A stretch of 64,000 bases of DNA from the NCBI RefSeq assembly GCF_963665355.1, contig NZ_OY762229.1, positions 2,232,001 through 2,296,000 of the forward strand, in the 5' to 3' direction. The stretch's first letter is position 1; the number at the start of each line of letters is the position of its first letter. The translations under genes and the position numbers were made by a program. A model generated the notes under the pieces. That model was not told the origin of the DNA. It ran no database searches and worked only from the letters and a program-made list of their open reading frames with translations. Source of the stretch: an uncultured Desulfobacter sp. (lineage in GTDB: Bacteria; Desulfobacterota; Desulfobacteria; Desulfobacterales; Desulfobacteraceae). Positions 13,571 to 52,170 of this stretch are shown here, one piece after another.

Positions 13571-13732
13571 AAAAAGCAAATTCGCCAGCGCAGGTGTAAA
13601 AACTGCCAAAATTTATTCATGCCCGATTCCCGCCATGGGCACTGGGCTCGTATCATTCTGCGTAGCAGAAAATCCACAAGATATCGTGGGTTTTCAATTT
13701 TAAAAAGCACAACTTATGGTGTTCTGGAATAG
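13568..13732 (+). pseudogene. zinc-ribbon N-terminal fragment cut by element A
   Basis: The frame reads MKKQIRQRRCKNCQNLFMPD and then SRH before it enters the repeat element at 13635 and stops at TAG 13730-13732. RRCKNCQ-x-LF-x-PDxR is the start of a zinc-ribbon type often found on small proteins beside insertion sequences; the second Cys pair is missing. The remaining 30 or so codons are derived from the element and carry no motif. Confidence 0.5.
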
Positions 13733-13748
13733 TACGAGCCCAGTACCC
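13635..13748. mobile_element. MITE-like element A, copy 1
   Basis: 114 bases (AT plus a 112-bp core, 13637-13748) identical in every base to 50493-50606. The core begins GGGCACTGGGCTCGTATCAT and ends with its near-inverse, so 22 terminal positions pair with two mismatches and one G-T. Three small internal inverted repeats are present: TTCTGC/GCAGAA, AAAATCCAC/GTGGGTTTT (one mismatch) and AGCAC/GTGTT. It has no reading frame of its own. Left and right flanks belong to different genes and show no target duplication, unlike copy 2. Confidence 0.85.
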
Positions 13749-14605
13749 TCGTCGATGACTTCATCAATTTTCTTTCCGGAGACATCTACGAAGGATTTTT
13801 GGATCAACTTCTCTCCGGCAGGATTGATTGAGACGAACCTGTTCTTTTTATCCAGGACCATGATTGCATCATCAAATCCGTCAAAAATTTCTGCTTTTGC
13901 AATTGGCATAATATCCAGGAAGTTGTACCGGCAAAATCCCCAGGCAAATGAAAGTGCAACAAAAGAGAAAGCGATCGGACTCAGGTCCATATTTCGGACA
14001 GGAGAATGCCCGGTAATGTATATGCCGTTGGCCACCCATACTATAAAAAGAGATGTTAGTATTACCCCTGCCTGTCCACGCTTAAAGCCGCTTGAGGTTA
14101 GGAATTGATGCAATAATAAGAAGAATGCAACGGCAAGCAAAAGGTAATGATAACCAACACTAACCCAGAATAAAGGACCATGATGTAGCCCCAGCATGGG
14201 GAATGGTCCTGATTCAATGGTATAGAAATCAGCATAAAAAAGATGATGATAGGAATTTGTCCATACAGCTATAAGGGTAAATAGCGGCACAATATACAGT
14301 AATCTTGCCCTGTACGGTTTCAGCCATGACTCAAAGCCAAAAATAATACAAGAGAGAATCAGAAAGGTAGGAGCAGTCAATACAATTCCGAGATATTGAA
14401 AACAGGTAATCAAAAAATTTATTTCTATATCAAAACCAAGGTAGAGCAAACCTTCTGTAAAAGACCAGTACCCTGCTGCAAAACAGAACAGAATAAAGGC
14501 TCGCCGGCCTCTTGCTCCGTGATGTGGCCATGCCATAGCAGCAACCCCCGCCATCAGAGCAACTGAAATCATAAAGGGGGCGATGTATACAAGATTAGTT
14601 TTCAT
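13700..14605 (-). pseudogene. truncated 7TM histidine-kinase sensor gene ending in element A
   Basis: 301 aa. Seven hydrophobic segments over residues 1-230 (with GLHHGPLFWVSVGYHYLLL in the middle) match the histidine-kinase N-terminal 7TM domain. A PAS domain begins at about 240 (IFDGFDDAIMVLDKKNRFVS) but breaks off after KKIDEVIDE. The last 15 residues and the stop codon come from the repeat element. No HisKA or ATPase domain follows, so the product could at most be a membrane sensor fragment. It lies 18 bases after a truncated ihfA-like frame. Confidence 0.75.
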
Positions 14606-49210: not shown

Positions 49211-50293
49211 ATGGCAAAATGGAAACCCGAAGTTCTAGTTGTGGATGACGAGCCCGGCAACCTGGAATTATTAAGACAAATTTTGCAGGATAAGTATGAG
49301 ATGTCTTTTGCCACAGACGGACAAAAAGCCTTGACCGTGGCACAAAAAGCCAAACCAGATATTGTTTTATTGGATGTTATGATGCCTGAAATGGATGGCT
49401 TAGAAGTTTGCCGGCGGTTAAAAAACAACCCTGTGACGGCTAAAATTCCTGTTATCTTTGTGACGGCCATGGGGGATGTGGATAATGAAGAAAAAGGGTT
49501 TGAAGCCGGGGGCGTCGACTATATTACCAAACCGGTATCTGCCCCCATTGTCCATGCCAGGATACGTTTGCATCTTGAACTATATAATCAGAATCGTGTG
49601 CTTGAAGAAAGGGTGGAGCAGCGAACAAGACAACTGCGACACGCTTATGAAACCATAAAAAATTTATCCCTGGATACCATTTACCGACTCGCCAGAGCTG
49701 CCGAATTCAAAGACGAAGATACCGGGGCGCATATCCTTCGTATGAGCAATTACTCTGCTGCCGTGGCCAGAAAGATGGGATTTGAAGAAAAGACCGTGGA
49801 ATCCATTTTATATGCCGCGCCACTGCATGATATCGGGAAAATCGGAACACCGGACAGAATCTTGCTCAAACCCGGCAAACTTGATGCTGCCGAGTGGGAA
49901 ATTATGAAGCAGCATACAATCAATGGGGGCATCATACTGGAGGGGTCTGAAAAGGGATTTATCAAATTAGGAGAGATAATCGCTTTAACCCATCATGAAA
50001 GATGGGACGGAACCGGATATCCGAAAGGTCTGAAGGGAAATGCGATTCCCAAGATCGCGCGCATAATAGCTATTGCTGACGTATTTGATGCCCTGACAAC
50101 CAAACGGCCCTATAAGGAGGCCTTTCCCATAGAGAAATCTTTTGCAATTATTAAAGAAGGTCGTGGAAGCCAGTTTGATCCGGCTGTGGTGGATGCTTTT
50201 TTTGCGGTTAAAAATGATGTTCTGGCCATCAAAGAAAAATATAAAGACGAAAATCAAAGTTTACTTTATAAAATTACAAGTACGTCTGCCTAA
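49211..50293 (+). CDS. REC-HD-GYP cyclic-di-GMP phosphodiesterase (RpfG-like)
   Basis: 360 aa. An N-terminal receiver (VLVVDDEPGN, acceptor Asp55 in VLLDVMMPEMDG, Lys of YITKPV) is joined by a coiled coil to an HD-GYP domain: HTGAHI-like DEDTGAHILR, HD at 206-207 (LHDIGKIGTPD), HHERWDGTGYPKGL with GYP at 269-271, and the DVFDALTTKRPYK motif. It should hydrolyse c-di-GMP when phosphorylated. The gene begins one base after the giant kinase stop, whose HPt is the probable phosphodonor. It is the functional opposite of the cyclase at 25555-26877. Confidence 0.93.
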   Translation: MAKWKPEVLVVDDEPGNLELLRQILQDKYEMSFATDGQKALTVAQKAKPDIVLLDVMMPEMDGLEVCRRLKNNPVTAKIPVIFVTAMGDVDNEEKGFEAGGVDYITKPVSAPIVHARIRLHLELYNQNRVLEERVEQRTRQLRHAYETIKNLSLDTIYRLARAAEFKDEDTGAHILRMSNYSAAVARKMGFEEKTVESILYAAPLHDIGKIGTPDRILLKPGKLDAAEWEIMKQHTINGGIILEGSEKGFIKLGEIIALTHHERWDGTGYPKGLKGNAIPKIARIIAIADVFDALTTKRPYKEAFPIEKSFAIIKEGRGSQFDPAVVDAFFAVKNDVLAIKEKYKDENQSLLYKITSTSA

Positions 50294-50297
50294 CCGG

Positions 50298-50656
50298 CTA
50301 TAAATCCTTTTCAACGGTGCCTTTGCGGTTGGGATCTCTCACCCGGGCCGGATCTGCCACCTGGGCTTCTTCTCCCGGTAAAAAATCAAGCCGGTCGAAC
50401 TGTTTGGGGGCTTTGTGTTTAACCTGCGGACAAATCGCTTTACGCTGTTGTATTTATAGTTAAAACTGAACTGTTCCGCCAGGTCCTGGTAGATGGGCAC
50501 TGGGCTCGTATCATTCTGCGTAGCAGAAAATCCACAAGATATCGTGGGTTTTCAATTTTAAAAAGCACAACTTATGGTGTTCTGGAATAGTACGAGCCCA
50601 GTACCCATAACGCCGGCAAGAGAGGAAAGGCATTGCTCCATTCTCTTATCGAACTC
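50298..50656 (-). pseudogene. IS21-type istA transposase remnant, split by element A
   Basis: On the minus strand, EFDKRMEQCLSSLAGV stops at element A. Beyond the element, IYQDLAEQFSF, KYNSVKRFVRRL follow, then (after a one-base frame change) HKAPKQFDRLDFLPGEEAQV and DPNRKGTVEKDL. Together they match the region of IstA just before the DDE core. Removing the element with one AT copy restores GTT-ATC-TAC (Val-Ile-Tyr) in frame. The rest of istA and istB are absent. Confidence 0.7.
50493..50606. mobile_element. MITE-like element A, copy 2
   Basis: Identical over all 114 bases to 13635-13748. The 112-bp core is 50495-50606, and AT lies on both sides (50493-50494 and 50607-50608), a 2-bp target duplication within istA. 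Terminal inverted repeats as in copy 1. No open frame of its own; it needs a transposase in trans. Confidence 0.88.
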
Positions 50657-50825: not shown

Positions 50826-52151
50826 CTAATCTGCTTTGCGTCTTAAGAACGTGGGAATTTCCAAATCGTCATTATCAAAACTCTCAAAGTTCATGCCGTA
50901 GTCCTGGGATGGTTTGTCTTCTCCCACCACTCTTTTGTGGCGGACAACGCGCACGGGTTCATCCCAGCTGGCTATATCCTCCTCCGTGGCATCCCTCAGA
51001 GTACCCCTGGCAATGGGTTCCGGGCGGCCTGTGGACATGGTCTGCCCGCCCTGTCCATAGAACTGGGCCGGGTATGCACCGTAAGCGCCGTATGTGCCGT
51101 TGGCCGCCGGCATTTGCTGGGGCTGCTGGGCCTGCTGGGCATAAGGCTGGGCTGTATGGGGGGCAAAACGGCTCATGTTTTCAGAAAGCGGCTGCTCCAT
51201 GCCGATACCTGTGGCAATAACGGTGATGCGGATTTCATCGCCAAGGGATTCATCAAAGGTCTGGCCCCAGATGATTTCAGCCTCGTCACCAACTTCCTGG
51301 TAGATGCGGTCACAGGCTTCGGTCATTTCGTCAAGGGTCAGATCAGAACTTGAGGTGATATTCATCAGTACACCCTTGGCACCGGACACGGAGATATCTT
51401 CGAGCAGCGGATGGGAAATGGCCCGCTCCGCCGCTTCCGTGGCCCGGTTTTCCCCGGAGGCAATACCAATGCCCATTAATGCCTTGCCTGCTTTCTGCAT
51501 GGTGGTTTTCACATCGGCAAAGTCCAGGTTGACGTGGCCGGGCATCATGATCAGGTCTGTGATGCCTTTAACGGAGTGGTGCAGAATTTCATCCGCTTTG
51601 ATGAACATGTCCTTCATGCGGGCACCTTTGCCTGCAATGCCGCGCAGCCGGTCATTGGGGATGGTGATGACGGTGTCGGTAATTTCCTGGAGTTTTTCCA
51701 AACCGTCCATGGCCGCCTTTTCCCGTTTTTTGCCCTCAAAGGAAAATGGTTTGGATGCCACTGCCACGGTGAGAATGCCCAGATCCTTGCAGATTTCTGC
51801 AATGACCGGCGCCGCCCCTGTGCCGGTACCACCGCCAAGCCCTGCAGTAATGAAGACCATGTGGCTGTCTGCCAGGGCTTCACGAAGTTCGTCCATACTT
51901 TCCAGGGCCGCATCCCTGCCCACATTGGGGTCTGCTCCGGCCCCGAGCCCTTCGGTGAGCTGGGTGCCCATCTGGATTTTCACTTCTGCCCTGGAGTGTT
52001 CCAATGCCTGGGCATCGGTATTGGCCACAATGAATTTAACGCCGCAAAGCTTGGCATCAATCATATTGTTGACCGCGTTACCGCCGGCTCCGCCGACACC
52101 AATGACCTTAATTTTAGCCGTATTGGTGTTTTCCACATAAGAGAAAGTCAT
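50826..52151 (-). CDS. ftsZ: cell division protein FtsZ
   Basis: 441 aa starting MTFSYVEN at ATG 52151; the upstream in-frame ATG (52163) lies within the GGAGGTGG that serves as ribosome binding site. VIGVGGAGGNAVN, the GTP-binding GLGGGTGTGAAPV and NDRL/NFDF-type NLDFADV segments are all present. A Gln/Ala/Pro/Tyr-rich linker (about 320-400) precedes the C-terminal peptide DDLEIPTFLRRKAD that binds FtsA/ZipA-like partners. It forms the Z ring. Last gene of the dcw cluster. Confidence 0.97.
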   Translation of the reverse strand: MTFSYVENTNTAKIKVIGVGGAGGNAVNNMIDAKLCGVKFIVANTDAQALEHSRAEVKIQMGTQLTEGLGAGADPNVGRDAALESMDELREALADSHMVFITAGLGGGTGTGAAPVIAEICKDLGILTVAVASKPFSFEGKKREKAAMDGLEKLQEITDTVITIPNDRLRGIAGKGARMKDMFIKADEILHHSVKGITDLIMMPGHVNLDFADVKTTMQKAGKALMGIGIASGENRATEAAERAISHPLLEDISVSGAKGVLMNITSSSDLTLDEMTEACDRIYQEVGDEAEIIWGQTFDESLGDEIRITVIATGIGMEQPLSENMSRFAPHTAQPYAQQAQQPQQMPAANGTYGAYGAYPAQFYGQGGQTMSTGRPEPIARGTLRDATEEDIASWDEPVRVVRHKRVVGEDKPSQDYGMNFESFDNDDLEIPTFLRRKAD

Positions 52152-52170
52152 ATCCACCTCCATTTTGGAT

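What the first reader, a model, noticed from the sequence alone, without database searches (positions are those of the whole stretch)
13635..13748. 112-bp inverted-repeat element present twice at 100% identity, 36.9 kb apart
13635-13748 and 50493-50606 are the same in all 114 bases although the surroundings are unrelated. The terminal 22 positions pair with only two mismatches, and the element encodes nothing. Complete identity in a non-coding sequence implies recent spread or gene conversion. I know of no named element with the ends GGGCACTGGGCTCGTA, so it may be an undescribed MITE family of this lineage.
Basis: seen in the sequence. Interest (0 to 1): 0.72.

Follow-up and report, generated by a model that had tools for sequence, protein, structure and literature searches.

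The report
Tiny hitchhiking transposon, IS1-like ends
This 110-base repeat is a miniature mobile element with no genes of its own that most likely copies itself around a bacterial genome by borrowing the transposase of an IS1-like insertion sequence with similar ends; it is a new example of a well-known kind of element.

Summary
In detail: window 13635-13748 and 50493-50606 are identical over 114 bases. The repeating unit is 110 bp (13638-13747, 50496-50605); the other four bases are coincidental flank. The genome has 8 exact copies plus one rearranged 106-bp copy. Three of the 9 have 8-9 bp target duplications, and at each of the three, leaving out the element plus one duplication gives an uninterrupted reading frame. 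One site, in a cbiD gene, has a 95%-identical paralogue about 5 kb away without the element.

The genome also carries IS1-like insertion sequences (343-aa transposase) whose left and right ends resemble the element's left and right ends; related IS copies in a congener make 8-9 bp duplications in 4 of 9 cases. Best explanation: a MITE moved in trans by an IS1-family transposase. Diverged relatives, 15 of 20 exactly 110 bp, occur in at least 8 genera. Both window copies lack target duplications; one truncates a 7TM-PAS histidine-kinase-type gene, suggesting an adjacent deletion.

I saw no description of it in the papers searched; it is a new member of a known kind.

The parts
13638..13747 (+). 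MITE copy 1, full 110-bp element (GGCACTGGGCTCGTATCATTC...GAATAGTACGAGCCCAGTACC); no target duplication
   Evidence: exact core shared with 7 other genomic places; flanks CCCGCCATG / CTCGTCGAT differ
13638..13658 (+). left terminal inverted repeat of copy 1
   Evidence: 18 of 21 positions match the right end; 20 of 21 match an IS1-like element's left end in a same-family genome
13727..13747 (-). right terminal inverted repeat of copy 1 (GGTACTGGGCTCGTACTATTC on the - strand)
   Evidence: resembles the right end of the IS1-like element of the same genome, GGCACTGGGCTCCAACTATTC
50496..50605 (+). MITE copy 2, full 110-bp element, between the convergent ends of an HD-domain response regulator gene (49211-50293 +) and ftsZ (50826-52163 -); no target duplication
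50496..50516 (+). left terminal inverted repeat of copy 2
   Evidence: identical to copy 1
50585..50605 (-). right terminal inverted repeat of copy 2
   Evidence: identical to copy 1
13700..14605 (-). histidine-kinase-type gene whose reading frame runs into copy 1 and ends inside it; the 7TM region and the first part of a PAS domain remain, no kinase domain was found in it
   Evidence: PF16927 E 5.1e-54; PAS models matched only to about position 50

Best explanation
The repeat is a 110-bp MITE, a non-autonomous transposon made of two terminal inverted repeats and a non-coding middle. An IS1-family transposase recognises its ends and moves it in trans, duplicating 8-9 bp of target. Shown: repeated sequence at unrelated sites, exact boundaries, target duplications on 3 of 9 copies, insertion into reading frames with a paralogue as empty site, and a co-resident IS1-like element with similar left and right ends; the matching duplication length of the IS is shown in a congener, not in this genome. 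Inferred: that this transposase (or a close relative with nearer ends) moves it, and that copies without duplications arose with adjacent deletions or other rearrangement.
For: 8 exact 110-bp copies and one rearranged 106-bp copy in 5.64 Mb. Target duplications on 3 of 9: gagacgtg, ctgttgccc, ttgccgtc. Leaving out element plus one duplication gives open frames of 272, 312 and 210 aa across the junctions; the first is CbiD by profile. The joined flanks align through the junction with the paralogue in the same genome (95% over 401 columns, two single-base gaps near the junction) and with the 5 congener genes held as loci (83-86%). IS of 1143 bp with a 343-aa transposase (NCBIfam IS1 E 6.8e-12) in the same genome, ends GGCACTGGGCTCGAATAATTC and GGCACTGGGCTCCAACTATTCCAAG. 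Of 22 places of the end pattern at up to 2 mismatches in this genome, 17 are MITE ends and 5 are ends of IS1-like copies. Related IS in congener G006: 4 of 9 copies with 8-9 bp duplications. Elsewhere 7 of 20 related small elements have 7-8 bp duplications.
Against: 6 of 9 copies in this genome, including both in the window, have no target duplication although the full cores are identical and so recent; no swapped half-duplications were found between copies. Of 16 full IS copies examined, only 4 have duplications of 8-9 bp, all in G006; the two in this genome have none. The resident IS ends differ from the MITE ends just after GGCACTGGGCTC. The IS1 profile match is below its curated cut-off (45.7 against 100 bits). 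One MITE-bearing genome of the family (G020) gave no transposase match, and MITE-bearing genomes of other families were not searched for it. No movement was observed.
Confidence: 0.92

Rival explanations
1. The element is moved by a transposase of another family that happens to have similar ends and target duplication length.
For: 8-bp duplications also occur in other families (PMC11448079, passages seen: 8-nt duplications for an ISL3-linked MITE); the resident IS1-like ends are similar but not identical to the MITE ends.
Against: Of 22 places of the end pattern (up to 2 mismatches) in this genome, the 5 that are not MITE ends belong to IS1-like copies; left and right ends pair separately with the MITE's left and right ends; another IS1-like element in the family has 20 of 21 left-end bases.
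Confidence: 0.05
2. The repeat is a functional structured RNA or regulatory cassette kept at many loci, the hairpin being the selected feature.
For: Own copy folds at -48.9 kcal/mol, z -6.77; one terminator-like stem inside. Slid versions of the structure pair far less than the structure itself (30-42% against 77.9% of cells).
Against: No Rfam match at gathering threshold. Across 21 relatives only the terminal repeat appears in the consensus fold. Pairs changed on both sides are no more than in shuffles (9 against mean 9.3); cells paired 77.9% against 76.8% (28 of 500 shuffles reach it) and covariation score 0.147 against 0.136 (69 of 500). Copies interrupt reading frames with target duplications.
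Confidence: 0.02
3. REP/BIME-like palindromes moved by a RAYT protein.
For: Short, palindromic, non-coding, several copies.
Against: A RAYT gene was not searched for.
Confidence: 0.01

Closest known systems
MITEAba12 of Acinetobacter (PMC6382973; abstract text and passages seen)
   Same: Non-coding element of 111-114 bp, 90% of copies one length (113), identity to IS limited to the ends, 9-bp duplications, duplications on only 40% of copies, disrupts a gene (hns).
   Different: Moved by ISAba12; IS with similar ends listed there begin GGCTTTGTTGC, unlike the ends here.
187-nt MITE of Microcystis (PMC11448079; passages seen)
   Same: Many identical copies in one genome, ends shared with a resident IS, 8-nt duplications, insertion in genes.
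   Different: Linked there to an ISL3-family transposase; other ends and length.
IS1-like insertion sequence with single 343-aa transposase, G000:C2:1346102-1347244
   Same: Left and right ends resemble the MITE's left and right ends (13 bases exact at left; 18 of 20 at right); relatives in G006 make 8-9 bp duplications.
   Different: 1143 bp, coding; similarity to the MITE is confined to the ends.

Membership tests
MITE | short, non-coding, terminal inverted repeats | tested here: met
   110 bp, 18 of 21 terminal positions inverted-repeat; no room for a transposase
MITE | multiple near-identical copies at unrelated sites | tested here: met
   8 exact plus 1 rearranged copy
MITE | target site duplication of constant length | tested here: met
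   8, 9, 8 bp on 3 of 9 copies here, absent on 6 of 9; 7-8 bp on 7 of 20 related elements elsewhere
MITE | ends shared with an autonomous element in the same genome | tested here: met
   IS1-like element, ends alike but not identical
MITE | mobilisation in trans by that transposase | not testable with these tools
   needs a transposition assay
IS1 family (the presumed mobiliser) | IS1-type transposase | tested here: inconclusive
   NF033558 E 6.8e-12 over residues 15-199 but 45.7 bits against cut-off 100; best plasmid relative (48.9% identity) is annotated IS1 family transposase
IS1 family (the presumed mobiliser) | 8-9 bp target duplications (length recalled; 8 bp at the ends of an IS1-type composite seen in a passage of PMC6382973) | tested here: met
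   4 of 9 copies in G006, 4 of 16 full copies in all, 0 of 2 in G000
Rfam structured RNA | match to a family model | tested here: not met
   no match at gathering threshold in the whole window
REP/BIME with RAYT | RAYT transposase in the genome | not tested
   no search made

The most novel reading that the evidence does not exclude
A single old MITE lineage whose length is locked at 110 bp, largely independent of interior sequence, has persisted across at least 8 genera and 5 families by parasitising successive IS1-like transposases, the length being imposed by the geometry of the transposition complex or by paired internal protein-binding sites.
Probability: 0.35. Interest if true: 0.45.

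Novelty: new member of a known kind. Interest (0 to 1): 0.3.

Why it matters
It adds a MITE family with IS1-like ends; I saw none described for this lineage in the titles, abstract starts and passages that my searches showed. It has recently entered reading frames in this genome (a cbiD copy, a transposase-like frame, an unassigned frame). The near-constant 110-bp length over diverged interiors is a testable clue to what an IS1-type transposase needs from a minimal substrate.

Tried and rejected
Structured RNA: no Rfam match at gathering threshold; internal hairpins not kept in the consensus of 21 relatives. Carriage by plasmids or phages: no match to the element in the plasmid (72,556 records) and phage (50,697 records) collections; none in viral contigs with an exact two-end pattern that misses elements beginning GGT at both ends. 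Exchange of target duplications between copies: best match 6 of 8 or 9 bases, nothing convincing. Association between MITE and transposase across family genomes: a Fisher value was computed, but the table mixed genomes not all scanned for both and relatedness confounds it, so I give it no weight. The repeated word GGGCACTGGCATCATA lies inside a large unrelated multi-copy element. Sigma-70-like promoters in 13600-13790: none. Rows left out before the counts: partial matches L046, L050, L051; repeats of one flank (L150, L152, L153); unpaired or doubtful ends (L141, L143, L145, L100).

Full report
Observation. The two stretches are identical over all 114 bases and diverge at once outside; they are the only repeat of at least 40 bp reported in the window. 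In the whole genome (5,643,293 bases, 3 contigs) a DNA search gave 9 places. Eight hold the exact 110-bp core GGCACTGGG...CAGTACC. The ninth (L052, L061) is a 106-bp form with an altered left part. The unit is therefore window 13638-13747 and 50496-50605; the leading ATG and trailing C are flank that these two copies share. The ends match at 18 of 21 positions.

It transposes. Three of 9 copies are flanked by duplications: gagacgtg (8), ctgttgccc (9) and ttgccgtc (8). At all three, leaving out the element and one duplication gives an open frame across the junction (272, 312 and 210 aa). The first is a cbiD gene (PF01888, E 4.8e-51 on the left piece). A 95%-identical paralogue lies about 5 kb away (start to start) without the element. 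The joined flanks align through the junction with it (401 columns, two single-base gaps near the junction) and with the genes of the 5 congeners held as loci (83-86%); 15 of 19 genus genomes, own included, have a match. This is a natural empty site. The interrupted cbiD copy also lacks roughly 90 codons near its start compared with the paralogue (coordinates), so whether it worked before the insertion is unknown. Of the other two frames, one resembles a transposase by eye (by profile only DUF4277 in its left piece) and the other had no family match on the piece tested.

What moves it. Searching the genome for the end sequence with mismatches exposed a 1143-bp element at C2:1346102-1347244 with ends GGCACTGGGCTCGAATAATTCAAG and GGCACTGGGCTCCAACTATTCCAAG around a 343-aa frame. 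Two full copies exist, with decayed pieces, and a 219-bp internally deleted derivative (L067). The protein matches the NCBIfam IS1 model at E 6.8e-12, below that model's cut-off; its best plasmid relative (48.9% identity) is annotated IS1 family transposase. A short-word comparison finds similarity between the MITE and the IS only at the ends (elsewhere just 8-base chance words): 13 exact bases at the left, 18 of 20 at the right, left with left and right with right. In this genome 17 of 22 places of the end pattern are MITE ends and 5 are ends of IS1-like copies. In congener G006, 4 of 9 copies of a related 1161-1162-bp IS have 8-9 bp duplications, the length seen for the MITE; over all 16 full IS copies examined it is 4 of 16, and neither full copy in this genome has one. 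An IS1-like element in another genus of the family has the MITE's left end at 20 of 21 bases (L104, L144). The exact parent was not found.

Relatives. With the element as query, 6 of 59 genomes (own included) have matches. With both ends separated by 70-100 bases, 9 of 389 genomes of the order match; the class-level search drew a largely overlapping set and gave the same 9 of 389. Distinct elements: 8 here, 11 elsewhere; of the 11, 9 are exactly 110 bp, one 109, one 96. No element with spacing 40-70 or 100-130 was found in 20 chosen genomes (exact match to the end pattern only, so diverged ones would be missed). Among 20 non-own elements brought together are 110 bp (range 96-113) and 7 have duplications of 7-8 bp; some borders were set by me from pairs of ends, and partial or repeated rows were left out as listed under Tried and rejected. 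They lie in at least 8 genera and 5 families (handles G000, G006, G015, G017; G031; G020; G091; G044; G111, G206; G281; G162).

Structure. The own copy folds strongly, as any long inverted repeat must. On 21 aligned elements only the terminal repeat appears in the consensus fold. Counting the pairs of the own structure gives 9 pairs changed on both sides against a shuffled mean of 9.3, 77.9% of cells paired against 76.8% (28 of 500 shuffles reach it), and a covariation score of 0.147 against 0.136 (69 of 500); slid versions pair 30-42%. I read the hairpin as a by-product of inverted ends and not as an RNA function. Near-invariant interior positions (ACAA-AT---GTG in the left half, ACA.....T..T in the right) might be protein sites; this is inference.

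Copies without duplications. Six of 9 copies, both window copies included, have none. Because the cores are identical, slow decay of duplications is unlikely. I found no swapped half-duplications between copies. Copy 1 lies where a 7TM-PAS histidine-kinase-type gene stops part-way through its PAS domain, which fits deletion of adjacent DNA. Missing duplications have been ascribed to degeneration, recombination between ISs, adjacent deletions or duplication-free movement (PMC11708052, abstract seen). MITEAba12 has duplications on 40% of copies (PMC6382973, passages seen). The proportion here is thus ordinary.

Literature. The searches showed no description of this element or of an IS1-type MITE in this lineage. 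I saw titles and abstract starts of the listed papers, passages of PMC11448079, PMC3718332 and PMC6382973, and the abstract and outline of PMC11708052. The library lacks most subscription journals, and ISfinder was not available. Placement in the IS1 family by duplication length partly rests on recall.

Verdict. A real, recently active MITE, probably driven by an IS1-family transposase: a new member of a known kind, with a curious constancy of length. On re-checking I lowered confidence from 0.93 to 0.92 because only 4 of 16 IS copies show duplications.

Noticed in passing
L139:920-1536 (G006:C1, from 1133919): Two elements of the family, one truncated at its left end, flank a tRNA-Met gene (1209-1285) within about 620 bp.
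   Followed up: partly
L142, L150, L152, L153 (G091:C1 about 3162624-3249666): Five places with the same element end about 19-24 kb apart; the four held as loci show the same 14 bases of flank on both sides, suggesting a repeated large segment or an assembly effect.
   Followed up: no
L044 (G006:C2:163926) and L045 (G015:C1:3864734): The element sits at the same site in two congeners (similar flanks on both sides), an old shared or co-transferred insertion.
   Followed up: partly
L171-L176 (G000:C2, six places): A multi-copy stretch of at least 2.3 kb, about 99.9% identical, with an ORF that by eye resembles IS66 TnpB and a 307-aa companion ORF.
   Followed up: no
G000:C2:950116-951207 and 955195-956128: Two cbiD copies about 5 kb apart; the second is interrupted by the MITE and lacks roughly 90 codons near its start relative to the first.
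   Followed up: partly
L067:1465-1683 (G000:C2 near 3053654): A 219-bp internally deleted IS1-like derivative keeping both ends and a match to the first 45 codons (one stop inside): a possible step from IS towards a small non-autonomous element in the same genome.
   Followed up: partly
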